A stretch of DNA of 52,849 bases from Elusimicrobia bacterium CG1_02_37_114 (GCA_001871125.1 MNXB01000033.1:371-53219), one strand, 5' to 3'. Positions 2,864 through 18,204 are shown, counted from the first letter of the stretch. The notes: generated by a model from the sequence alone, not told the origin. Numbers and translations are program-made.

Positions 2864-4189
<1,326 letters not shown>

Positions 4190-4345: not shown

Positions 4346-4371
4346 TTAACATTTGTCAGAAGAAATGTTAA
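4346..4371 (-). terminator. Hairpin just downstream of the RT gene
   Basis: 9-bp inverted repeat TTAACATTT/AAATGTTAA with 8-nt loop, followed on the minus strand by an AT-rich run. Confidence 0.4.
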
Positions 4372-4385
4372 GTGAGAATCTCATC

Positions 4386-5381
4386 TTAGAAATATAATTC
4401 ATTGAAAAGTTTTGTTCTTAAACCCCAAGTGTCACCCCATGAAACATGAGCAATCCATGAGAGGATAGAATTGCTTATTTTCTGTATATTAATTACTTTT
4501 TTACGATATAGATTTCTTAATTTTACAAGTTTCCTTCTAAAATAAAAAAAGTTTTCTTTTTTCAATAACCTATGAGTTGGGAATATTTTGAATCCAAGAA
4601 AATCAGTCCCTTGTCCAACAGAGAAAACATGCGTTTTATCTGGATGAATTTGTAACTTAATCCCATCAAGATATTTTAAAATTTCAGATTTTATTTCACA
4701 CAATCTTGATTTATCATTATCAAGAATAACAAAATCATCTACATAGCGAATATAATACTTACATCTCAACTGTTCCTTCACAAAATGGTCAAAACCATCA
4801 AGATAAAGGTTGGCAAAAAACTGGCTGGTTAGGTTACCGATTGGAATTCCATATTCATTGTTTGTTGAGTTCAATATTTTTTGAACAAGCCATAAAACTT
4901 TTTCATCTTTAATTTTTCCTGAAATAATGTTAAACAAAATTCCACGGTTAATAGTATCAAAATACTTAACAATGTCACATTTAAGCACATATTTATTTCT
5001 ACGACAGAAATCCTGAAAACACAAAATGGCTTTATGCGTTCCTTTCTCCTTGCGGTTAGCATAAGTATCATAAATGAAACTTTTTTCTAATATTGGTTCA
5101 ATGACATTACATAAAGCGTGATGGACTACCCTGTCACGATAAGGGGCAGCACTGATTATACGTTTCTTAGATTCGTATACGATAAATTGCTTATACCTGC
5201 CAGGCTTATAAGTTTGACTTACTACCTCTTTTTGAAGTTTAAGCAGTTCCTTTTCTAAATTAAAATTAAATCGTGCAGTATTCTCTCTGAACCTTTTACC
5301 TTTCTGTGCTTTTCTTGCTGCCAGAAGTAAGTTTTCAAACGAACAGATTCTTTCGTAGAGATTGTTATATGTTTTTACCAT
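4386..5381 (-). CDS. DGR reverse transcriptase
   Basis: RT motifs KCDIVKYFDTIN, GIPIGNLTSQFFANLYLDGFDHF, RYVDDFVIL, TDFLGF; adjacent to a TR/VR pair with adenine-only differences and an Avd-like ORF. Confidence 0.96.
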   Translation of the reverse strand: MVKTYNNLYERICSFENLLLAARKAQKGKRFRENTARFNFNLEKELLKLQKEVVSQTYKPGRYKQFIVYESKKRIISAAPYRDRVVHHALCNVIEPILEKSFIYDTYANRKEKGTHKAILCFQDFCRRNKYVLKCDIVKYFDTINRGILFNIISGKIKDEKVLWLVQKILNSTNNEYGIPIGNLTSQFFANLYLDGFDHFVKEQLRCKYYIRYVDDFVILDNDKSRLCEIKSEILKYLDGIKLQIHPDKTHVFSVGQGTDFLGFKIFPTHRLLKKENFFYFRRKLVKLRNLYRKKVINIQKISNSILSWIAHVSWGDTWGLRTKLFNELYF

Positions 5382-5581
5382 AATTTTCAGGTGTCAGTGG
5401 CGACATTCGGCACCCCGATAAATCGGGACGATTACCAGCCGCAACTGACAGTTTTTATATTTGCCCCGATAAAAATAATCGGGGACAGGAGACGGGTTTT
5501 AGACTCAATATTTGCACGCTTGGTCCTGCCTTAGCAGGATCAATTCTGGCTTTCCCAGAAATATTTCCGGCTTTGAGACTT
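5382..5581 (-). ncRNA. DGR TR-RT spacer, likely the structured part of the template RNA
   Basis: Several inverted repeats: TCCTGC/GCAGGA (5524-5539), CCCCGAT/ATCGGGG (5464-5484), CCCGAT/ATCGGG (5414-5427), and a long-range TGTCAGT/ACTGACA pairing close to the RT start. Confidence 0.5.
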
Positions 5582-5700
5582 ACAGGCGACACACAACGGA
5601 ACCCATTGTTGTTGTTCCTGTTGTCAGGGTTGTTCCTGTTACGATTAGAGGAACGGCAGTTGTTAGCATTGTTGTTCCAACTACCGCCACGAAGCACCCG
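5582..5700 (-). repeat. DGR template repeat (TR), 119 nt
   Basis: Gapless alignment to 6145-6263. Rich in AAC/AAT codons (would translate as WNNNANNCRSSNRNRNNPDNRNNNNGF). 17 mismatches to VR, all at TR adenines. Confidence 0.98.
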
Positions 5701-5711
5701 AACAGCACCTT

Positions 5712-6065
5712 TTATCCTATCCCCTTTTGATGATGTTGCTGACGCAACCAGCCACCAATTAAATTTCCTATATCGTTTATTTGACGAGATAAATACTCGT
5801 ACCTGTCTATATTTATAAACTTCATATCTTTACAAATCCTGACAAAATATCTGAATTTTTCTAATTGTATATTTGTTCTTGCAAGTATTTCCATTTTATT
5901 TTTTGTATATTTTGCTTCAATTAAATTTCCAAGAATATCAAAAAGCAAATTCTCCAATTTTTCGCCAATAGTAAAGCGATGTGTTTTTGGAAATTTGATT
6001 ATTTGTGGTAGGCACCAAAGGATTAAATCGTAGGTTTTTGTAATAACATCTAAATCATTGCTCAT
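5712..6065 (-). CDS. avd: DGR accessory protein (Avd-like four-helix bundle)
   Basis: 117 aa, predicted helical, located between target and TR/RT as in known DGRs; segment EKLENLLFDILGNLIEAKYTKNK resembles the Avd/four-helix bundle family. Confidence 0.85.
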   Translation of the reverse strand: MSNDLDVITKTYDLILWCLPQIIKFPKTHRFTIGEKLENLLFDILGNLIEAKYTKNKMEILARTNIQLEKFRYFVRICKDMKFINIDRYEYLSRQINDIGNLIGGWLRQQHHQKGIG

Positions 6066-6090
6066 TATGAAAAATCAAAATTTATGGCGA

Positions 6091-6105
6091 CCCGCCTTCG
6101 GCGGG
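6091..6105. promoter_or_regulatory. Hairpin about 40 nt past the 3' end of VR, candidate target-recognition hairpin
   Basis: Perfect 6-bp GC stem CCCGCC-TTC-GGCGGG in the target-avd intergenic gap. Confidence 0.4.
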
Positions 6106-6131
6106 GAAGGTGTAAAAGAATAAAGTGTAAA

Positions 6132-7400
6132 TTATTGAGTCCTCACAGGCGACACACAACGGAACCCATAGCTGAAGTCCCAGACGTCAGGGTTGACCCA
6201 GTAACGATTAGAGGAACGGCAGTTGCTAGCAACGCTGTACCAACTACCGCCACGAAGCACCCGGTAAGAACCCTTATCAGGTCCTTCAGGATTTTTATCA
6301 GGACTAATTCTGTAATACTTCTCATCATACCAGTCAGAACACCATTCCCAGACATTGCCGTGCATGTCATATAAACCATATTGATTTGGTTTTCTCCTAC
6401 CTACAGGGTTTGTCATACCACCTGAATTCTTTTCATACCAGGCATATTCACCTAATTCTGATTCCACATCTCCAAAACAATACTTTGTTGTTGAACCTGC
6501 CCTGCAGGCTTTCTCCCATTCTGCTTCTGTGGGTAATCTTTTACCATAATACCTGGCATACTGGTTTGCACCATACCAGGTTACATTTACTACAGGGTTT
6601 TTCTCATAGCCACTTGCTGGTTGCCATCTACCACCTGATTTTTTCACTCCCCATTTATGTTTATATATCATTTTTTGTCCATTCTCATCCGTGTGTTTAC
6701 CATATTCATTTAAAAACTTTGCATACTGTTCATTTGTTACTTCATATTTATCTATGTAGTATGCATCAAGATACACTTTATGTTGGGGATGTTCGTCTTT
6801 CTCGCCTTCTCCTTCTGGTGAACCCATCATAAATTCCCCTGCCGGGATTAATACCATTTTTACTTCGTCTTTACCGATGATTTCTTCTGAAACATTTTCG
6901 GTTTGAGAAATCTGATTAATTGTTTCCACTTTACCGCTGGTCATTAAAACAGCCAATTCCTCAGACTTATCGGCAAATTCTTCAATAGAATCTGCTTTTA
7001 CTTTTTCGGATTTGATAATTTGTCCTGTCTCCACATCAACTATATTGGCATTTATAAAATACTTTGAACCAAGTTTTGATATAGTGCCAACAACAACTTT
7101 TTGAACATTCAGCAACTTTCCTATTTTAACAGCACATTCTTGAGAAGTGCAACCAGTTATCTGAAATTTTTGTTCTTGAAGTATCAGTTGCATATTATTT
7201 CTATCAATTACTTTATACTTTCCAGTTTTTACGAATCCTGTTCGTATGAAATCAGTAACTACACCTGCATCCATTGCTGAAATACCTTTACCTTCAAATT
7301 CTGCTACTGCTATGTTTGTTTTCTCTTGTGAATAGAGATTATATGTTGATAAAAGAACTATTGAATAAATGATGATTATTTTCTGAAGTGTTTTAACCAT
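6132..7400 (-). CDS. DGR target protein: signal peptide + CsgG-like domain + FGE-sulfatase (C-type lectin fold) domain carrying VR
   Basis: N-terminal hydrophobic signal; TNIAVAEFEGKGIS...VVVGTISKLGSKYFINANIVDVETGQII CsgG-like; VLIPAGEFMMGSPEGEGEKDEHPQHKVYLDAYYIDKYEVTNEQYAKF and LPTEAEWEKACRAG...GLYDMHGNVWEWCSDWY...VLRGGSW FGE motifs; VR at the C-terminus. Confidence 0.93.
   Translation of the reverse strand: MVKTLQKIIIIYSIVLLSTYNLYSQEKTNIAVAEFEGKGISAMDAGVVTDFIRTGFVKTGKYKVIDRNNMQLILQEQKFQITGCTSQECAVKIGKLLNVQKVVVGTISKLGSKYFINANIVDVETGQIIKSEKVKADSIEEFADKSEELAVLMTSGKVETINQISQTENVSEEIIGKDEVKMVLIPAGEFMMGSPEGEGEKDEHPQHKVYLDAYYIDKYEVTNEQYAKFLNEYGKHTDENGQKMIYKHKWGVKKSGGRWQPASGYEKNPVVNVTWYGANQYARYYGKRLPTEAEWEKACRAGSTTKYCFGDVESELGEYAWYEKNSGGMTNPVGRRKPNQYGLYDMHGNVWEWCSDWYDEKYYRISPDKNPEGPDKGSYRVLRGGSWYSVASNCRSSNRYWVNPDVWDFSYGFRCVSPVRTQ
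6145..6263 (-). repeat. DGR variable repeat (VR), 3' end of the target gene
   Basis: 119-nt gapless match to TR 5582-5700 (constant offset 563); encodes VLRGGSWYSVASNCRSSNRYWVNPDVWDFSYGFRCVSPV. Confidence 0.98.
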
Positions 7401-7541: not shown

Positions 7542-8100
7542 ATGAGATATAAAATATTTGTTAGCGGTGTTCAAAAGGAATTAAAAGAAGAACGCCGTGC
7601 AATAAAATATTTTATCCAGGCTAATTATTTACTGTCAGAATACTTTGACATATTTCTGTTTGAGGATTTACCTGCAAAAAGTGAATCGTCAAAAGAAGTT
7701 TATATAGACGAGATTAACGATTCTGATATTTATATGGGTATTCTGGGAGGTGAATATGGCACTATCGGTAAGGATGGTTTATCCGCTACTGAACGGGAAT
7801 ACCGGCAGGCAAAGAAAAAAAGTAAAACCATCTTCGCATTTATAAAAAATGTTCCGACAAAAGATAAAAAAATAGAAAGTCTCATTGCTACTATCAAGAC
7901 TGGGTTTAAATGAAAGACAATTAAAGGCAGTAAAATATGTGAAAGAAAAAGGTAAGATTACAAACCTAGAATATCAAAAACTGACAGGAGTGTCTAAACC
8001 CACTTCCACCCGTGATCTACTTGAACTTGTTAAAAAATCGGTTTTTAAGAAATTTGGAAAAACAGGTAAGGGGACATTATATAAACTAAAGGGCTCATAA
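7542..8100 (+). pseudogene. Decayed DUF4062 - (AlbA-like ATP-binding, missing) - winged-helix protein
   Basis: ORF 7542-7913 has a DUF4062-like N-terminus (KIFVSGVQKELKEERRAIKYFI...FEDLPA...YMGILGGEYG) but stops abruptly. Another frame carries only the typical C-terminal wHTH (LGLNERQLKAVKYVKEKGKITNLEYQKLTGVSKPTSTRDLLELV). Confidence 0.7.
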
Positions 8101-8285
8101 ACGGCTCAAAGGACTCATAAAGGGCTCAGTATTGGCTCAAAGGGGATATAAAGGGGACAAATTATTAAATATCCTCATCATTAAACAAATCTATAATATT
8201 CAATCAATAATCTTCACATTGAAATAACTATATAAAATTTGTAAAATGATACTTGTTATTCAACACATAACAAAGAGGTGCTATT

Positions 8286-9842
8286 ATGCCAGGCAATCAC
8301 AATGATACTGAAAAACGGCTTTGGGAAGTTGCAGACCAACTCAGAGCAAACTCACACTTAAAATCATCAGAATATTCCGTTCCGGTATTAGGGTTAATTT
8401 TTTTACTCTATGCTGATATAAGATACTCCATAGCAAAAGAAGAAATTGAAAAACAACATCAGAAATCAAAGAGCCGTAAAGGAATATCAAAAACCGATTA
8501 TCAAGCAAAAGGCATATTGTATATCCCAGAGACCAGTCGTTACGGTTACTTAAAAAATCTTCCTGAAAGTGAAGACATCGGAAAAGCCATTAACAATGCA
8601 ATGAAACAGATAGAACCTGAAAATGAAGAACTTAAAGGAATCCTGCCAAAAACATATAACGAGTTTGAAAAAGATGTCTTAATAGCCCTGTTAAAAACAC
8701 TTTCAAGCATTCCTATGGACGCTGAAGGCGACATATTCGGCAAGATTTATGAATATTTTCTTGGCAAATTTGCATTAGCAGAAGGGCAAAAAGGCGGAGA
8801 ATTTTTTACTCCTGCTTCTATTGTCAAACTTATAGTGGAAGTAATTGAACCGTTTCGCGGTAAAATTTATGACCCTGCCTGTGGTTCTGGCGGTATGTTT
8901 GTCCACAGTGCAAAATTTGTAGAAAAACATAAAGCAATCCCGAACAAAGAAATTTCTATATACGGTCAGGAAAAAACCGCTGAGACAATAAAACTATGCA
9001 AGATGAACCTTGCCATATACAATCTATCAGGAGACATAAAACCAGGAAACACCTATTACGATGACCTCCATAATTCAATTGGTAAGTTTGACTTCGTAAT
9101 GGCAAATCCGCCTTTTAATGTTGACAAAGTAGATAAAGAAAAAATCAAAGAAGACAAGCGATTCAGTTATGGAATACCAAAACCCGATAATGCCAATTAC
9201 TTATGGATACAGATATTTCTTAATTCCTTAAATGATAGAGGCAGGGCAGGATTCGTTATGTCAAACGCTGCCGCTGATGCCAGACAATCAGAACAGGAAA
9301 TCAGGAAGAAAATGATTGAAGAAGGGGTGGTAGATGTAATTATTTCTGTTGGTTCAAATTTCTTTTATACCGTAGCACTGCCTTGCACATTGTGGTTTTT
9401 TGATAAAGGGAAACGGAAAGCACTCAATAAAGATAAAGTCCTATTCATTGATACCCGTAATATATATAAACAAATTGACCGTGCACATAGGGAGTTTACT
9501 CCCGCACAAATAGAATTTATTTCAAATATAGTGAGAATGTATAGAGGAAATGAGATTGAAACAAGTAGTGATAGTAAAGAAATGATGAAAGAAACTTTCC
9601 CAGATGGTAAATATAAAGATACCCCTGGACTTTGCAAAGTCGCAAAAATAAAAGAAATTGTGGAACAAGGATATTCCCTTAATCCAGGAAGGTATGTCGG
9701 AGTTGCTGAAAGAGAAGAAGACGACTTTGATTTTAAGGAACAGATTGAAGAATTAAACAAGGAATTGAAATCCTTTAATACCGAAGCACATCAGTTAGAA
9801 AATAATATTTCAAGTAATATAGCAAAATTGTTAGATGAATAA
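8286..9842 (+). CDS. hsdM: Type I restriction-modification system methyltransferase subunit
   Basis: N-terminal [77 protein letters not shown]. Confidence 0.97.
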
Positions 9843-11022
9843 TAATTGGAATACATTAAAACTGCATGATATCTGCAAGTTCAAGTATGGTGCAGGTTTA
9901 CCAAAAAGGAATCGCATAAAAGGAGAATTCCCTGTCTATGGTTCAGGAGGAATTGTTGACTATCATAATGATTATTTAATAAAAGGACCAGGAATAATTA
10001 TTGGAAGAAAAGGAACAATTGGTAGTGTTTATTTTGAGAAAAGAAACTTCTTCCCAATAGATACAGTATTTTATATTGAAGAAAATAAAAAAAAGTATAA
10101 CATTAGATTTCTCTATTTCTTATTAGGGAATCTTGGTTTGGATAGGTTGAATTCTGATGCGGCTGTTCCTGGTCTTAATAGAAATGTTGCACACCTGCAA
10201 AAAATTAATTTACCAAATTGTGCTATACAAAATAAAATTGCCTCTATCCTTTCCGCCTACGATGACCTGATTGAAAATAACAATCGCCGAATTAAGATAT
10301 TAGAGGAAATGGCACAAACAATTTATAAGGAATGGTTTGTCAATTTTCGTTTCCCAGGACACGAAAAAGTAAAAATGGTTGATTCTGAATTAGGCAAAAT
10401 CCCTGAAGGTTGGGATATAAAACAAATAAGTGATATTATTGTCATTAAGTCCGGGTTCGCTTTTAAGAGCGACACATTTAATATAGAAGGAAAATATGGT
10501 ATTGTTACAATAAAGAATGTGCAAGATAGATTATTTATACATAAATGTCAAAACTTCATTGATGTAATTCCCGAGAATATGTCAAAGCACTGTTTATTAA
10601 AATCTGGCGATATTATTCTCTCTTTAACTGGAAATGTAGGAAGAGTATGTTTGGTATTTGGAGATAATTATTTATTGAATCAGCGAGTTGCTAAACTTGT
10701 TCCAAAAAGTGATTCAGATTGGGCATACATATATTTTTTATATCTTAATCCTGACTTCAGAAAAACTCTTGAGAATATTTCAATTGGTGCTGCACAACAA
10801 AACTTAAGTCCTATTGAAATGGGCAAATTAAAAATAAACTATCCTGAAAAATCTATACTTAGCCTTTTTGCGAAAGTATGTAATCCGATATTGGAAAACA
10901 TAGTATTTCTTTTTAGGAAAAATGTTTTATTACAAGAAAGCCGTGACCTTTTACTCCCCAAACTTATTTCGGGTGAAATTGATGTTGAGGATTTAGATAT
11001 TAAAACAGAGGACACAGAATGA
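9835..11022 (+). CDS. hsdS: Type I restriction-modification specificity subunit
   Basis: Two TRD-like halves with conserved central ([31 protein letters not shown]) and C-terminal ([16 protein letters not shown]) regions; overlaps hsdM and hsdR. Confidence 0.96.
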
Positions 11023-14000
11023 CAGGTAATTTCTCGGAACAACAACTCATAGAAAATAGTGCTATTGAGATATTTCAATCTCTTGGGTATTCCCATCAAA
11101 ACTGTTATGAGGAACAGTTTGGGCAGAATTCTACACTCGGCAGAGAAACTCCTATGGATGTTGTCCTTATCCCAAAACTAAAAATTGCTATATCTCGCCT
11201 TAATCCGACATTAAAACCCGAAAGCATAAATCTCGCTGTTGAAGAAATAACCAAAGACCGCAATATACTAAATCCAAGTGTAGCAAACAGGGAGATATAC
11301 AAACTCCTTAAAGACGGAGTAAAAGTTCCTGTCCGTAAAGAAGACGGGAGTGAAGAATTAGAAACCGTTAAAGTCATTGATTTTGCCAATTCAGACAATA
11401 ACGACTTCTTTCTTGCTTCGCAATTCTGGATTAACGGGGATATGTATAAACGCAGGGCAGACCTTGTTGCTTTTGTAAATGGAATGCCGTTAATATTTAT
11501 TGAACTTAAAGCAATTCATAAAAAAATGGAAAATGCTTTCAAAGACAACCTGACTGATTATAAAGATACCATTCCGCAGATTTTCTGGTATAACGCATTT
11601 ATTATTTTATCCAACGGTTCTGAAAGTAACATCGGTTCAATGACTGCCGAATGGGAACACTTCAACGAATGGAAGAAAATCAATAACGAGGGAGAAAAAG
11701 GAATCGTTTCACTTGATACTATAATAAAAGGGACTTGCGAAAAATCAAAGTTCCTTGATATTTTTGAAAACTTTATTCTTTTTCAGAAAAAAGGGGAAGA
11801 AGGTAGTTCTTATATAAAAATACTTGCAAAAAATCATCAATATTTGGGGGTTAATAAAACATTAGAATCGTTCAAAGATATTAAAAACAAAAAAGGGCAA
11901 CTTGGTGTATTCTGGCATACCCAGGGAAGCGGTAAGAGTTTTTCAATGATTTTTTTCTCGCAGAAAATACTGCGGAAATTTTATGGCAATTATACTTTTC
12001 TTGTAGTTACGGACAGAATAGAATTAGACAAGCAGATTTACAATAATTTTGAAAGCACAGGTGCAGTAACGGAAATTGAAGTTCACGCTGATAGTTGTTC
12101 TCACTTAAAACAACTGCTTAAAGAAGACCATAGAAATATATTTACACTAATACATAAATTCAGAACAGAAGAGGAAAAGGAATACCCCATAACTGACCGC
12201 AAAGATATTATTGTAATAACAGATGAGTCCCACCGCACACAATATGACCAATTGGCGATGAATATGCGGAAGGCATTGCCTAATGCTTCCTTCATTGCAT
12301 TTACTGCTACTCCCTTGATAGAAGGTGAAGAAAAAACGAAGGGGACATTTGGCGACTATGTCAGCATTTATAGTTTCAAACAGTCAACTGATGATAATGC
12401 AACAGTTCCATTGTTTTATGAAAACAGGATACCTGAAGTCCAATTGGACAGTAAAGTTTTAAGCACTGGGTTGGAAGAAATTCTTGAAGATGCTATGCTT
12501 GACGATAGGCAGGAAGAAAAACTAATGAGGGAGTTTGAAAGAGCATATCATATAATAACCCGTGATGACCGTTTAGAAAAAATAGCGGAAGATATAGTCA
12601 AGCATTTTACTACAAGAGGTTATCTGGGCAAGGCTATGGTCGTTTCCATTGACAGACCGACTGCTGTTAAAATGTATGATAAAGTTAAAAAATACCTGAA
12701 ATTGGAAATTGAACGCACAAGAAAACTCAAAGCAAAAGATGACAGGGAAAAAGAAATTTTCACAAAGAGAATTGAATATCTTGAAAAGACCGATATAGCG
12801 GTAGTTGTAAGTTGGGGAAACACCCAAAATGAAATTAAAACTTTCAGAGACCTCGGATTGGATATTGTAACGCACCGTAAAAGAATGCTGGATGAAGATT
12901 TAGAAAAGAAATTCAAAGATGCACAAGACCCGTTTAGAATTGTTTTTGTTTGTTCTATGTGGATGACAGGATTTGATGTCCCCTGTCTTTCAACGGTATA
13001 TCTTGACAAACCAATGAAGAATCATACCCTTATGCAGACCATAGCAAGAGCGAACAGAGTGTTCGGAGATAAGCCCAATGGACTGATTGTTGATTATATC
13101 GGCATTTTCAGGAATTTGCAAAAAGCACTTGCCATATATAATCCTGGCGGTAAAGAGATTGACTATCCCGTCAAACCCAAAGAAACACTTATTAAAGAAC
13201 TAAAAGATGTTATTGATAAGGCGACAAAACTTTGCAAACAACAAGGGATTGATATTGAGAAGATTATCAAAGCTAACAAGTTAAACACAATAAAATTGAT
13301 TACTGAAGCGGTTGATATTATAATATCAAATGAAAAAACAAGGAAAGAATTCGTCAGTTTAACAAACCTGATAAAAAAACTGTATAAAGCAATACTTCCC
13401 GACCCCAAGGCGGAAATATTCAGAGTTAAATATTATATGTTCAAAACCATAGCAGATAAGATAGGAGAATTATCTCCTGAAACAGATATTGAAGAAGTAA
13501 AAAAGAAAATGGAAAGATTGCTTGACGATTCCATTGATGCCAAAGGATTTATCATATCAGATATTATTTCTTCTTCCTACGATAATAAGATTGATTTAAG
13601 TAAGATAGATTTTGATATGTTAAAAGAAAAATTCGTTAAAGACAAAAAACACATTGAAGTATCAATGCTTAAAAATAGCATAAATAATTTACTGGTTGCA
13701 TTGGTTAGATTAAACAAACAAAGAACTGGTTTCCTTGAAAAATTTCAAAAATTGGTTGATGAATATAATTCTGGAGCAATGAATGTAGAAATGTTTTTTA
13801 ATGAACTTAAAGAGTTTTCCAAAGAATTAAATGCCGAAGAAAAGAGACATTTATCTGAAAAACTTACCGAAGAACAACTTGCTGTATTTGACCTGTTATA
13901 TAAACCTGACTTAAAGAATACTGAAAAGGATAAAGTTAAACTTGCATCTAAAAAACTTCTTGAAACGCTTAAAAAGGAAAAACTTGTGTTGGACTGGCGA

Positions 14001-14165
14001 AAAAAACAACAGGCAAGAGCGGATGTGTTATTAGCAATACAAAACATTCTTGATAAAGAACTACCTGAAAGTTATCCTAAGCCACTCTATGAAGAAAAAT
14101 GCACTCTTATCTATCAACATATATACGACTCCTATTTTGGGCAGGATAGAAGTATATATCATTAA
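11019..14165 (+). CDS. hsdR: Type I restriction-modification endonuclease/translocase subunit
   Basis: FIELKAI nuclease motif; WHTQGSGKSFSMIFF Walker A; DESHRTQYD; AFTATPL; TGFDVPCLSTVYLDKPMKNHTLMQTIARANRV. Confidence 0.97.
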   Translation: MTGNFSEQQLIENSAIEIFQSLGYSHQNCYEEQFGQNSTLGRETPMDVVLIPKLKIAISRLNPTLKPESINLAVEEITKDRNILNPSVANREIYKLLKDGVKVPVRKEDGSEELETVKVIDFANSDNNDFFLASQFWINGDMYKRRADLVAFVNGMPLIFIELKAIHKKMENAFKDNLTDYKDTIPQIFWYNAFIILSNGSESNIGSMTAEWEHFNEWKKINNEGEKGIVSLDTIIKGTCEKSKFLDIFENFILFQKKGEEGSSYIKILAKNHQYLGVNKTLESFKDIKNKKGQLGVFWHTQGSGKSFSMIFFSQKILRKFYGNYTFLVVTDRIELDKQIYNNFESTGAVTEIEVHADSCSHLKQLLKEDHRNIFTLIHKFRTEEEKEYPITDRKDIIVITDESHRTQYDQLAMNMRKALPNASFIAFTATPLIEGEEKTKGTFGDYVSIYSFKQSTDDNATVPLFYENRIPEVQLDSKVLSTGLEEILEDAMLDDRQEEKLMREFERAYHIITRDDRLEKIAEDIVKHFTTRGYLGKAMVVSIDRPTAVKMYDKVKKYLKLEIERTRKLKAKDDREKEIFTKRIEYLEKTDIAVVVSWGNTQNEIKTFRDLGLDIVTHRKRMLDEDLEKKFKDAQDPFRIVFVCSMWMTGFDVPCLSTVYLDKPMKNHTLMQTIARANRVFGDKPNGLIVDYIGIFRNLQKALAIYNPGGKEIDYPVKPKETLIKELKDVIDKATKLCKQQGIDIEKIIKANKLNTIKLITEAVDIIISNEKTRKEFVSLTNLIKKLYKAILPDPKAEIFRVKYYMFKTIADKIGELSPETDIEEVKKKMERLLDDSIDAKGFIISDIISSSYDNKIDLSKIDFDMLKEKFVKDKKHIEVSMLKNSINNLLVALVRLNKQRTGFLEKFQKLVDEYNSGAMNVEMFFNELKEFSKELNAEEKRHLSEKLTEEQLAVFDLLYKPDLKNTEKDKVKLASKKLLETLKKEKLVLDWRKKQQARADVLLAIQNILDKELPESYPKPLYEEKCTLIYQHIYDSYFGQDRSIYH

Positions 14166-14313
14166 AAACAAGTCAGGTAAATCACCCTTGACTTTTTCAG
14201 ATATTTTAGGTATAGTTATATTCAGCCCATCTATCAATAATTATGTTTATACATGAAATGTGTGCCGCAATGTTCATTCAAGGTTCATAATCTAAGGGGA
14301 GGGATTAAACCTT

Positions 14314-14499
14314 ATGAAAATTCAAGGAAAACTTCAGCGTAATTTTCAGGGTAAAGAAGGATCAGGGGATAAAAATATCCTTAAATCTGTCCAACAGACG
14401 TCAAGGTTTTCCGAAACTGAAAAAAATTATTTTCAGCGTCTTGCAAAATCCAAAAACCAGCCTATCAAAGAACCTGTACTAGTTAGTGGGAAAATTTAA
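14314..14499 (+). CDS. Small hypothetical protein (61 aa)
   Basis: ORF from the track with an upstream purine-rich stretch; no recognised family. Confidence 0.3.
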   Translation: MKIQGKLQRNFQGKEGSGDKNILKSVQQTSRFSETEKNYFQRLAKSKNQPIKEPVLVSGKI

Positions 14500-14741
14500 A
14501 TCTTTCTTGACTAGTCATATTTGTCTTTCTTTATGTTATCCCGCCTATCAATTTGTAAATAACCAAGAGGATATATTATCATGATACACTTCATAGATAT
14601 GGGACAGGGTAGTTCTTTTTTCAAATTCATAGATGTATACTGGAAAGCGGGCCATACGGGTAATAATAGGACTATTCATAGACTGTGCAATTTGATGCGA
14701 AAAATGAATGTGAAATTAGCGGTAGTGGAAGAATATCTTAA

Positions 14742-16279
14742 CCTGAAAAAAGCGTGAAAAACGCATTTTTTGAATCTGATTCAGACGGTAATTGTTTTTT
14801 CAAATTTAAAAATTATTTGCAAAATTTTAAATTTCTCATATTTGCTTCATCTTGTTAATATTTTTCATTGCTTGATTGTATAGATCTTTATAAAAATAAC
14901 TGGCAGGAAATCCTAACTTGTTTTTATGTCCTGTCTTAGTTAATCTTGCTTGAACACATAACAACTGTTCTCTAATAGTTTGTAAAGTTTTGTAACGATA
15001 GTCATCTGGTAAACATAACCATTTAAACCAGTTAACGATATTAAATGCTAACAGAAGTATTTGAAAGTAAGCAATATTTGCTGTATATTCATGAGTAGGA
15101 ATTTTTGCTAATGGATAATTTAGTTTCAGTTCTTTGATATTTTGTTCAGCACCTTGGGCTCTCATTGAGTGAAAGTTCCATATATATCTGGATTTGATTC
15201 TAAGATTAGTTACTACTACACGATAACCATAATTGCTCATCTCAAATAATTTCAATTGAGAACGTTCATCTGGATCTTCTGGTATTGGTCGTCGTTGGAC
15301 TACAAAACGATGTGACTTTTCCCAGTTAGTCGGTTGAAATCTGAATTCTGCCACTTCCCAGTCTCCTTTGTAATGACAATATTTTGCTTGTTCCATTTCT
15401 GAGCGTATCCCTGCTCCTTCTGTGTCTGCTTCTATTGTATAGCAGATATTCTCTTGCTCAAGATAATCTTCTATGAATTTATGACTGTAAAATATTTTAT
15501 CTCCACGTATACGAATACGATATATCGGATATGGCAATTTCTCCAAACATTCCTTGATAATATACGGTGCGACTGTTACTTGTGATACATTGCCTGATTT
15601 CAAACTCCCATACCAGAATTCTCTATCTGACTCAAAACACAACATCGCCATATAACTCCTTGCCCCTCTTCTTTTGGGATTAAATCCAACTTTTGTTCTT
15701 TGCTGTTTGCCAAAAACTGTTAATACTGTTCCGTCTATATCAAGTGTTATACTCGTTTTGGGATGTGAGATGCAAAATATTTTCCCCTGTATTATATTGT
15801 GGACTTTGACTATCTGTCGTATTCCATCTGGAGTGAGCCGATATAGAAAACGTCGTATTGCTGTAGAATGTGGGAATTTCTTTATACCAAGTATCTTTTG
15901 AATTACTCCATTGTATCCAAGAGATTTTGTATTTTCTATTCGCCCTATTCCAGCAATCATTATGTAAATCAAAACTAAAATAAATTCTGCTGTTTGATAT
16001 TCCTGGTTTCTTTGGTGGAATTTTATATAACGCTGTAGTAACCATTTCAGTTTTAATTTTTGACAAAATTTGTGAATTAAGAATAGTCCACCAAAGTGGG
16101 TTATATTCTTTTCTGTGAAGGAAATTTGGATGTTTTTGATACCTTTTGTCATAGTGCATGAACCTCACTAAAAGTGAAACTGGTGCACTACTGCTCTTTT
16201 GATATATATTGTATATTTTTTCAGTCATAAAATCAAGAAAAAACTTTCAAAAAAATGCGTTTTTCACGCTTTTTTCAGG
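14742..16279. mobile_element. IS1380-like insertion sequence
   Basis: Terminal inverted repeats CCTGAAAAAAGCGTGAAAAACGCATTTTTTGA (14742 on) and its complement ending at 16279, flanking one transposase. No obvious target-site duplication. Confidence 0.85.
14836..16152 (-). CDS. IS1380-family transposase
   Basis: 438 aa: SITLDIDGTVLTVFGKQ, GFNPKRRGARSYMAMLCF, IRIRGDKIFYSHKFIEDYLEQENICYTIEADT; DDE transposase group seen in IS1380 elements. Confidence 0.85.
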   Translation of the reverse strand: MTKGIKNIQISFTEKNITHFGGLFLIHKFCQKLKLKWLLQRYIKFHQRNQEYQTAEFILVLIYIMIAGIGRIENTKSLGYNGVIQKILGIKKFPHSTAIRRFLYRLTPDGIRQIVKVHNIIQGKIFCISHPKTSITLDIDGTVLTVFGKQQRTKVGFNPKRRGARSYMAMLCFESDREFWYGSLKSGNVSQVTVAPYIIKECLEKLPYPIYRIRIRGDKIFYSHKFIEDYLEQENICYTIEADTEGAGIRSEMEQAKYCHYKGDWEVAEFRFQPTNWEKSHRFVVQRRPIPEDPDERSQLKLFEMSNYGYRVVVTNLRIKSRYIWNFHSMRAQGAEQNIKELKLNYPLAKIPTHEYTANIAYFQILLLAFNIVNWFKWLCLPDDYRYKTLQTIREQLLCVQARLTKTGHKNKLGFPASYFYKDLYNQAMKNINKMKQI

Positions 16280-16389
16280 TATAGTTAAGTAACCTTGAAT
16301 TATCTGATTTCTGACCCTTGAAATTCCTATCATAAAATAGTATAATTGCAGTGAAGAATCTTGCAACAAATTTATTAAGGAGCAAAAAC

Positions 16390-18204
16390 ATGTATCTTCA
16401 CTTCCCTTTTAGCAGTGCTATGAATTTTATGAAATTAAAAGGTCATGGCAATCTCATCAAATTGGTAAATAAAGTGCTATCTAATTATCCTTCGGGCCAA
16501 CTGAAAAGAAGGGCTAAAAAGTGGTTTATGGTTGAAATAATGAAAGAGAAAGACATGTTCGTAGAATTTATTGCTGAATATTTACCGGATGCTAACCCGG
16601 TAGAGGTTCAGAAAAGGTTAGAACTATGGAGAGATGCGGCAAGGGAGTTGACGGGAACACCGGAGCTTACTTTTATTTACAGTAAAAGCCAAGGAGAAGA
16701 AGACAGTAAAGCCCTTCCTTGTCCCTATTACGAACAATTAATTGTTGTTTGGCCTACCTGGAAAGGTAAATGCAATACAGCCTCCGAATGTAGAGAGAAA
16801 AATGAAATGGATATCGCCTGTCAAAAAAAACTTAACAAGATAGCTAAGAAATCAAATAGCGCTACCTTCATAAACAACGATAGAAGTGAGGAAAAAGAAT
16901 TTTTCGAGTTAGACGACGGGCAGCAACCACTTGAAATTGACGAATCACAACGAAAGATTTTTGCATTACCAAGTGACCCGGCAATAATTGACTTACATCG
17001 TAGATATCTTAGAGGCAAGGTTATACTAAATCCTGAATTTCAACGGTTTCATGTCTGGGACCGCGCTACATCCAGTCGTCTTATAGAATCCGTTTTATTA
17101 AATGTACCAATACCTATAATTTATTTAGCAGAAGAAAATGACGGGAACTATTCTTTAATTGATGGACAACAAAGACTTCGTGCATTTTTTGACTTCTTAG
17201 AAAATAAATTAGAATTACATGGGTTAACCGTATTGCAAGAATTGAATGGAAAAGAATTTAATCAGATTTCACCTGATTATCAGGACAAACTTGAAAATTC
17301 CACAATCCATACAATTGAAATTAAAAAGGAATCTTCTATCGACATAAAATTTGAAATATTTGAACGATTAAATAGAGGCTCCATGAAACTTAACGACCAA
17401 GAACTAAGAAATTGCATTTATAGGGGTAAATATAATCAACTTATAAATACATTGGCCTTAAACAAAGATTTCTTGGGTCTATTAGGATTAAAAGAGCCAC
17501 ATAAGAGAATGTTTGACAGAGAACTGGTTTTAAGATTTTTTTCTATGTACCATGCAACTTATTTAAAGTACAAACCTCCTGCGAAGCAATTTATGAATAG
17601 CGACATGGAAAAATATCGCAATGTAACAGAAGAGGACGAAAAAGAGCTTACGGAAACATTTAAGAAAACTGTCCAGATGACAAAAACCGTTTTCGCAGAT
17701 AATGCTTTCAAAAGATTTGTCGTAGGCACCGATAAAAATCCAAATGGGGAATGGGAGAGAAGAAGAATAAATCAAGCACTTTTTGATGTTATTATGTTTG
17801 GTTTTTCACAATATGGGCAAAATCAAGTTATACCTAATAGTGATGCTATTAGAGAAGAACTTATATGGTTGATGAGCCATGATACAGAATTTATTGAATC
17901 AATTATTATTGGAACAAGTGATAGGCCAAAGGTATACTCAAGGTTTGAGAAATGGCTTCATGCACTAAAGTCTATAGTAGGGTCACCTCGAACAGAACCA
18001 AGAAATTTTAGTTTAGACATCAAAGAAAAACTATTTAAAAATAATCCAACATGTGCGATATGCCAGCAAAGAATACACAATTTAGATGACTCAGAGGTTG
18101 ACCATATAGAGCATTACTGGAGAGGTGGCAAGACAATACCTGAAAATGCAAGATTAACACACCGTTATTGCAATAGGGCTAGAGGTGGTTCAAATAATAT
18201 CTAA
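16390..18204 (+). CDS. DUF262 domain + C-terminal HNH protein (GmrSD-like) with an unusual N-terminal extension
   Basis: RBS AAGGAG before ATG 16390; NPEFQRFHVWDRATSSRLIESVLLNVPIPIIYLAEENDGNYSLIDGQQRLRAFFDFL (DUF262); C-terminal CAICQQRI..EVDHIEHYWRGGKTIPENARLTHRYCNRARG (HNH). Confidence 0.88.
   Translation: MYLHFPFSSAMNFMKLKGHGNLIKLVNKVLSNYPSGQLKRRAKKWFMVEIMKEKDMFVEFIAEYLPDANPVEVQKRLELWRDAARELTGTPELTFIYSKSQGEEDSKALPCPYYEQLIVVWPTWKGKCNTASECREKNEMDIACQKKLNKIAKKSNSATFINNDRSEEKEFFELDDGQQPLEIDESQRKIFALPSDPAIIDLHRRYLRGKVILNPEFQRFHVWDRATSSRLIESVLLNVPIPIIYLAEENDGNYSLIDGQQRLRAFFDFLENKLELHGLTVLQELNGKEFNQISPDYQDKLENSTIHTIEIKKESSIDIKFEIFERLNRGSMKLNDQELRNCIYRGKYNQLINTLALNKDFLGLLGLKEPHKRMFDRELVLRFFSMYHATYLKYKPPAKQFMNSDMEKYRNVTEEDEKELTETFKKTVQMTKTVFADNAFKRFVVGTDKNPNGEWERRRINQALFDVIMFGFSQYGQNQVIPNSDAIREELIWLMSHDTEFIESIIIGTSDRPKVYSRFEKWLHALKSIVGSPRTEPRNFSLDIKEKLFKNNPTCAICQQRIHNLDDSEVDHIEHYWRGGKTIPENARLTHRYCNRARGGSNNI

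What the first reader, a model, noticed from the sequence alone, without database searches (positions are those of the whole stretch)
4346..7400. Complete DGR with adenine-only TR/VR divergence (17 of 17)
TR 5582-5700 and VR 6145-6263 align over 119 nt with no gaps. In the coding orientation there are 17 mismatches, all at TR adenines: 10 A-to-T, 7 A-to-G, none to C. The other 87 TR positions are unchanged. Of 32 TR adenines, 17 are altered. Examples are AAC to TAC, AAT to GTT, AAC to GTC, AAC to TTC and AGG to TGG. Together with the RT (YVDD) and an Avd-like ORF in the order target-avd-TR-RT, this is the established DGR signature of adenine mutagenesis by mutagenic retrohoming.
Basis: partly seen in the sequence, partly recalled or inferred. 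Interest (0 to 1): 0.88.

Follow-up and report, generated by a model that had tools for sequence, protein, structure and literature searches.

The report
Self-mutating surface-protein cassette (DGR)
This stretch of an uncultured Elusimicrobia-type bacterium carries a complete diversity-generating retroelement, a known kind of cassette that rewrites the tip of one exported binding protein by copying a template badly at its A's; it is a clear but ordinary new member, with a few details a specialist could follow up.

Summary
TR 5582-5700 and VR 6145-6263 (minus-strand sense) differ at 17 of 119 positions, all TR adenines (10 A>T, 7 A>G). Homology runs three bases further, with an 18th A>G at the 3' edge. 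The RT (4386-5381) best matches the solved BPP-1 DGR RT and keeps YVDD and IGNLTSQ. The Avd (5712-6065) passes NCBIfam's DGR-Avd cutoff. The target (6132-7400) has a likely signal peptide, a CsgG/LpoB-like domain and an FGE-type C-type-lectin domain with the VR at its C-terminus. I added independent tests. In 48 distinct TR/VR pairs, mostly from related loci, 50% of TR adenines are changed against at most 2% of other bases. The sister genome carries a second, distant target changed at 23 TR adenines. A GC-rich hairpin sits 36 nt after the VR, where relatives have theirs. The TR-RT spacer folds like other DGR spacer RNAs and covaries with the sister genome's. This is a new member of a known kind. 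Less ordinary: in this RT lineage A>C is almost absent (1 of 39 adenine changes against 20% in relatives), and the hairpin loop is GAA, not the described four-base GRNA. Activity is inferred, not shown.

The parts
6132..7400 (-). Target (variable protein) gene, 422 aa: likely N-terminal signal peptide, CsgG/LpoB-like domain (about residues 30-133), FGE-sulfatase (FGE-type C-type lectin) domain (180-416) with the VR at the C-terminus
   Evidence: Pfam FGE-sulfatase 1.6e-66, CsgG 3.7e-10, LpoB 5e-05; PDB hits to FGE 1e-36 and to DGR protein TvpA 2y3c 8e-30. Signal peptide read by eye from the N-terminus (MVKTLQKIIIIYSIVLLSTYNLYSQ), not predicted by a tool
6145..6263 (-). Variable repeat (VR); homology reaches 6142
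   Evidence: 119 nt ungapped match to TR, 17 mismatches all at TR adenines
6145..6168 (-). Putative IMH: adenine-free 24-nt 3' end of the VR (TGGGTTCCGTTGTGTGTCGCCTGT)
   Evidence: Read from the alignment; assignment by analogy with BPP-1 (PMC3240598)
6091..6105 (-). Hairpin/cruciform element 36 nt after the VR: CCCGCC-GAA-GGCGGG
   Evidence: Only match in the window, 0.03 expected, and only 4 such palindromes in the 2.09-Mb genome; relatives have GC-rich hairpins at +34 to +38 and the sister genome has CACCGCC-GAA-GGCGGTG after both of its VRs
5712..6065 (-). avd, accessory variability determinant, 117 aa
   Evidence: NCBIfam NF033474 DivGenRetAVD 111.9 bits, cutoff 80; Pfam bAvd 72.2 bits, cutoff 40
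5582..5700 (-). Template repeat (TR); homology reaches 5579
   Evidence: read in the target frame it encodes 14 Asn, and no codon can become a stop by adenine mutation
5582..5605 (-). Putative IMH*: adenine-free 3' end of the TR
5382..5578 (-). TR-RT spacer, structured RNA (expected bRT-Avd docking and cDNA priming scaffold)
   Evidence: MFE -65.9 kcal/mol, z = -4.0; 12 both-side compensatory pairs against the sister genome, 0-2 when partners are slid; best hit in 15 kb of a covariance model built without it, 12.0 bits, E 0.01; Rfam RT-14 aligns full-length but below threshold, 20.6 bits
4386..5381 (-). DGR reverse transcriptase, 331 aa, motifs IGNLTSQ and YVDD
   Evidence: Best PDB match the BPP-1 DGR RT 8ub7, 8e-58; next best 6.5e-18; 73% identical to an Elusimicrobia RT

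Best explanation
A complete, probably functional, chromosomal diversity-generating retroelement of the BPP-1 layout (target-avd-TR-RT) in an Elusimicrobiota genome. Inferred mechanism: a transcript covering the avd end, the TR and the structured spacer is bound by RT and Avd. The spacer primes cDNA synthesis at the 3' end of the TR. The RT misincorporates opposite template adenines. The mutated cDNA replaces the VR of the target gene, guided by the adenine-free 3' end (IMH) and the hairpin 36 nt downstream. The product is an exported protein with a CsgG/LpoB-like N-terminal domain whose FGE-type C-type-lectin tip varies at up to 18 codons, presumably to bind changing ligands (phage, particles or other cells). 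Shown here: the anatomy, the adenine-only divergence, the conserved RNA and DNA elements, and the same pattern in relatives. Inferred: activity, the priming site, the ligand and the benefit.
For: Adenine-only TR/VR divergence, P 3.5e-12. RT closest to the BPP-1 DGR RT by 130 bits over any other solved RT. Avd over the curated cutoff. FGE/CLec target with C-terminal VR. 48 distinct TR/VR pairs with the same bias. The sister genome G001 (same order, RT 73% identical) has a second target on another contig with the same CsgG-like plus FGE architecture and 23 changes at TR adenines; its only other mismatch is at the 3' edge. Hairpin after the VR at the position relatives use, with a stem change that keeps pairing and an unchanged loop in the sister genome. 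Structured, covarying spacer RNA. No non-adenine TR/VR difference at 87 positions, which implies recent copying.
Against: No reads or population data, so current activity is not shown. The hairpin loop (3-nt GAA) departs from the GRNA tetraloop described for phage DGRs in PMC3240598. The match to known DGR spacer RNA models is weak in score (12.0 and 20.6 bits). Only one TR/VR pair exists in this genome.
Confidence: 0.96

Rival explanations
1. A former DGR, now inactive: the cassette is intact by sequence but no longer expressed or no longer homing.
For: No activity data. The only other FGE-domain gene in the genome is cut by a contig end, so further targets are unseen. The flanks show decay: a truncated DUF4062 gene and a transposase.
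Against: RT, Avd and target frames are open with catalytic motifs intact. There are no non-adenine TR/VR differences in 87 positions, whereas a dead element should drift. Spacer RNA and hairpin are conserved against a different family of the order.
Confidence: 0.15
2. Two ordinary diverged repeats (gene conversion or duplication of an FGE-domain end) with chance bias toward A.
For: The TR reads as part of an FGE domain (30.8 bits), as any DGR TR for such a target must.
Against: P 3.5e-12 for 17 of 17 at A; RT plus Avd adjacent; the same one-letter bias in 48 distinct pairs.
Confidence: 0.005
3. The RT belongs to another RT system (group II intron, retron, DRT or abortive infection) and the repeats are unrelated to it.
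For: NCBIfam and PADLOC give group II, DRT and retron RT models as hits.
Against: All NCBIfam hits are below their curated cutoffs (156.8 against 300 bits for the best). The BPP-1 DGR RT is far ahead in PDB (199 against 68 bits). The Avd gene and TR lie directly upstream.
Confidence: 0.01

Closest known systems
Bordetella phage BPP-1 DGR (mtd-avd-TR-brt)
   Same: Gene order, RT and Avd, adenine-only TR/VR divergence, structured spacer before the RT, hairpin after the VR, CLec-type target
   Different: Chromosomal, next to purA and restriction genes with no phage genes recognised; target is an exported CsgG/LpoB-like plus FGE protein, not a tail fibre; hairpin loop GAA (3 nt) instead of GRNA (4 nt)
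Treponema denticola TvpA DGR
   Same: Bacterial chromosome, FGE-type CLec variable protein; TvpA (2y3c) matches the target at 8e-30
   Different: The N-terminal domain here is CsgG/LpoB-like; the signal sequence shows no lipobox by eye
Elusimicrobia bacterium OS_PC_MetaG.mb.21 DGR (L004/L006; G001)
   Same: RT 73% identical, same TR design, covarying spacer RNA, hairpin with the same GAA loop, target with the same domains
   Different: Two targets (one by the RT, one on another contig); the distant target has an extra stretch, read by eye as PEGA-like repeats, between its CsgG-like and FGE domains
Other Elusimicrobiota DGRs (L112-L119)
   Same: Same phylum, mostly FGE targets, adenine-biased TR/VR
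   Different: Order target-avd-RT-TR: the TR and its RNA follow the RT
Rfam RT-14 RNA (RF02921)
   Same: The spacer aligns over all 144 positions; a related DGR spacer passes the family threshold (L011)
   Different: Window score 20.6, below the gathering score 48.1

Membership tests
Diversity-generating retroelement | Reverse transcriptase of the DGR class with intact YxDD and the [IVL]GxxTSQ motif | tested here: met
   IGNLTSQ and YVDD present; best PDB hit the BPP-1 DGR RT, 8e-58. The class motif is cited from general knowledge
Diversity-generating retroelement | TR/VR near-repeat with mismatches at TR adenines | tested here: met
   17 of 17 at A, P 3.5e-12
Diversity-generating retroelement | VR in the 3' end of a target gene, CLec fold | tested here: met
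   The VR is codons 380-418 of 422; FGE-type domain by sequence. No structure was solved or predicted here
Diversity-generating retroelement | Accessory protein (Avd or other) | tested here: met
   NF033474 111.9 bits, cutoff 80
Diversity-generating retroelement | Structured TR-flanking RNA that recruits the RT and primes cDNA | tested here: met
   Structure: z -4.0, covariation, best hit of an independent model. Priming not tested
Diversity-generating retroelement | Hairpin/cruciform after the VR with a 4-nt GRNA loop | tested here: inconclusive
   Hairpin present at the usual distance, but with a 6-bp stem and 3-nt GAA loop; only 23 of 61 DGRs pass the same search and the TR-side control gave 18, so the search alone is weak; positional clustering and the GATA-type loops carry the argument
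Diversity-generating retroelement | Adenine mutagenesis and homing shown by VR variants in a population or assay | not testable with these tools
   No reads or strains of this species; sister genome and relatives only
Rfam RT-14 RNA (RF02921) | Score at or above the gathering threshold 48.1 bits | tested here: not met
   20.6 bits, E 1.3 in a 361-base search
Active formylglycine-generating enzyme | Ser-Cys-Cys triad (hFGE S333, C336, C341) | tested here: not met
   By alignment the Ser and second Cys are kept (S386, C394) but the first Cys is S389, at a variable codon (AAC to AGC); triad as given in PMC6328139

The most novel reading that the evidence does not exclude
The RT of this Elusimicrobiota DGR lineage has a restricted error spectrum: it turns template A into G or T but hardly ever into C (dG is rarely put opposite A). 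Window and sister genome together show 1 A>C in 39 adenine changes, against 121 in 601 in relatives (Fisher P 0.005). Three further Elusimicrobiota DGRs of the same gene order have 0 in 50, even at AAC codons, where the BPP-1 RT puts in G most often (PMC12875486). Test: measure cDNA errors of this RT against bRT on one template.
Probability: 0.2. Interest if true: 0.45.

Novelty: new member of a known kind. Interest (0 to 1): 0.27.

Why it matters
DGRs are an established system, so the find itself is mainly a well-supported new example from a little-studied phylum. It matters more for what hangs on it: a lineage with cis and trans FGE targets, a TR-linked RNA scaffold recognisable across phages, bacteria and an archaeon, and a hint that the A>N spectrum differs between RT lineages, which would help explain how DGR RTs choose the wrong base.

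Tried and rejected
(2) A second VR in the own genome: DNA and pattern searches found only the TR and the VR; the one other FGE-domain gene is cut by a contig end, so a second target is not excluded. (3) Close relatives for VR comparison: the family holds no other genome. (4) The idea that zero A>C marks a clade: rejected as stated. The RT tree does not group the zero-C loci (L106 lies elsewhere, and L107 with 5 A>C lies among them), and 6 of 47 other loci also have none; kept only as a weak lead. (5) Rfam at its own threshold shows only tRNAs in the window. (6) The covariance model did not recover the sister genome's spacer convincingly (2.6 bits); direct covariation with the window did. (7) A literature search for DGRs in Elusimicrobia gave one apparently unrelated paper, judged from its title and abstract, so whether this DGR is already catalogued (for example in the supplement of PMC8144416) is unknown. 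(8) No structure prediction was run: the permitted inputs would not have given a useful alignment for the target.

Full report
The observation. The alignment of TR 5582-5700 with VR 6145-6263 was recomputed on the minus (coding) strand: 119 columns, no gap, 17 mismatches, all at TR adenines, 10 A>T and 7 A>G, 15 of 32 adenines unchanged and all 87 other positions identical. Given the base make-up, the chance of all 17 falling on A is 3.5e-12. The repeat continues to 5579/6142, where one more A>G occurs. Both VRs of the sister genome show a similar A>G at their 3' edge, so this last one may mark the IMH/IMH* boundary rather than mutagenesis. Read in the target's frame the TR encodes RVLRGGSWNNNANNCRSSNRNRNNPDNRNNNNGFRCVSP. 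Thirteen codons are changed in the VR, mutated bases are at codon positions 1 and 2 only, no codon can become a stop by adenine mutation, and the TR can in principle give about 4e18 proteins.

The proteins. The RT (331 aa) matches the solved BPP-1 DGR reverse transcriptase (8ub7) at 8e-58 and 199 bits, against 68 bits for the next structure, a group II maturase; YVDD and IGNLTSQ are present. That 8ub7 is the BPP-1 enzyme is my own knowledge; the record calls it only a reverse transcriptase. Group II, retron and DRT models are hit only below their curated cutoffs in NCBIfam. The Avd scores 111.9 bits against NCBIfam's DGR-Avd model, cutoff 80. The target has FGE-sulfatase (1.6e-66) and CsgG (3.7e-10) Pfam domains and matches formylglycine-generating enzymes and the DGR variable protein TvpA in PDB. 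The enzyme triad given for human FGE in PMC6328139 (Ser333, Cys336, Cys341) corresponds by spacing to S386, S389 and C394. The middle position is a variable codon, AAC in the TR and AGC in the VR, so the enzyme is not intact. In the sister genome's distant target the first of the three positions has itself been mutated, Ser to Cys. This speaks for binding rather than catalysis, as PMC6328139 argues for other FGE-type DGR proteins.

Relatives. The RT's closest named relative is in an Elusimicrobia MAG (73% identity), which is the same contig as genome G001 of the window's own order. No other genome of the family is held. Eighteen of 342 genomes of the phylum carry an RT at this level. Across the loci first fetched, 48 distinct TR/VR pairs (the window included) were scored with an unbiased extension: 611 of 1221 TR adenines are changed, against 37 of 1817 C, 14 of 1041 T and 4 of 1589 G. 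The pairs themselves were found with a scoring that tolerates mismatches at A, on both strands and in both roles; in every fetched related locus of that run the pair came out on the RT's sense strand. In G001 the TR lies beside avd and the RT. The VR of the nearby target is cut by the contig end after its last 22 matching bases, and a second target on contig C174 has 23 changes at TR adenines (14 A>G, 8 A>T, 1 A>C) and one other difference at the 3' edge. That second target has the same CsgG-like start and FGE end as the window's target. This sister DGR therefore appears to serve at least two genes, one in trans.

Cis elements. After the VR, at +36, the window has CCCGCC-GAA-GGCGGG. It is the only such palindrome in the window (0.03 expected) and one of four in the genome. 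Among relatives the hairpins cluster at +34 to +38 with GATA, GAGA, GGTA or GACA loops, in line with the GRNA rule of PMC3240598. The sister genome has CACCGCC-GAA-GGCGGTG after both of its VRs, a stem change that keeps pairing and the same three-base loop. The mechanical hairpin search is not strong evidence alone: 23 of 61 loci passed it and 18 passed on the TR side. Its position and loop are what make it persuasive.

Spacer RNA. The 197-nt TR-RT spacer folds far better than shuffles (z -4.0), as does the sister's (z -3.3). On the window's own predicted structure, 12 of 51 pairs change on both sides and stay paired in the sister, none change on one side only and 12 break; sliding the partners leaves 0 to 2. 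This structure came from the window itself, so the percentage paired is favoured, but compensatory changes are not. A covariance model built from 32 other DGR spacers, without window or sister, finds the window spacer as its best match in 15 kb, full length, 12.0 bits, E 0.01, with the next hit at 4.9 bits. The score is low and the placement is the argument. The model also finds the element in an Altiarchaeales archaeon (44.7 bits). In Elusimicrobiota DGRs whose TR lies after the RT, it finds matches just after the TR, so the RNA goes with the TR. One relative's spacer passes Rfam's RT-14 threshold; the window's does not (20.6 against 48.1). PMC12875486 states that the BPP-1 spacer folds into a structure that recruits bRT-Avd and that an adenine within it primes cDNA synthesis.

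Error spectrum. The window shows no A>C. Alone this is weak (Fisher P 0.055), and 6 of 47 relatives also have none. With the sister's distant target (edge change left out) it is 1 in 39 against 121 in 601 (P 0.005). Adding three Elusimicrobiota DGRs of the same order gives 1 in 89, but these were picked after seeing their zeros and do not form a clade with the window, so that P value should not be taken at face value. VRs are also filtered by selection. It is a lead, not a result.

Setting. The cassette lies between purA (2864-4153, named from its sequence) and a truncated DUF4062 gene followed by a type I restriction system, a DDE transposase and a GmrSD-like gene. No phage genes were recognised around it, so it appears chromosomal; no prophage tool was run.

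Verdict. It is a new member of a known kind, with modest extra interest from the trans target in the sister genome, the GAA-loop hairpin and the possible restricted spectrum.

Noticed in passing
window 7542-8100 (+): Truncated DUF4062 gene: the DUF4062 N-terminal part (77 bits) stops at 7913 and a winged-helix-like C-terminal piece follows in the next frame, as left by an internal deletion.
   Followed up: partly
window 8286-18204 (+/-): Defence-type block beside the DGR: hsdM, hsdS, hsdR (type I restriction), a DDE transposase (14836-16152) and a GmrSD_N/HNH gene that also matches PADLOC NsnA (299 bits).
   Followed up: partly
own genome G000 contig C121:61547-61766 (L078): The only other FGE-domain gene of the genome runs off the contig end, so its C-terminus, where a second VR would lie, is missing from the assembly.
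   Followed up: partly
G001 contig C174:5632-5756 (L130): Trans target of the sister genome's DGR: 23 of 24 mismatches at TR adenines, with the same downstream hairpin as its cis VR.
   Followed up: yes
L112-L119 (Elusimicrobiota): A second DGR layout in the phylum, target-avd-RT-TR, with the spacer-type hairpin following the TR rather than preceding the RT.
   Followed up: partly
L007 330-605 and 1506-2540 (Altiarchaeales archaeon A3): Archaeal DGR whose avd-TR-spacer unit is separated from its RT (51% identical to the window's) by about 900 nt holding other reading frames.
   Followed up: no
L102 (G309 C28): RT 52% identical to the window's sits in a 620-codon open frame with no Avd or TR/VR pair found within about 5 kb.
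   Followed up: no
window 8087-8168 (+): Short imperfect tandem repeats (units like AAAGGGCTCAT) between the DUF4062 remnant and hsdM.
   Followed up: no
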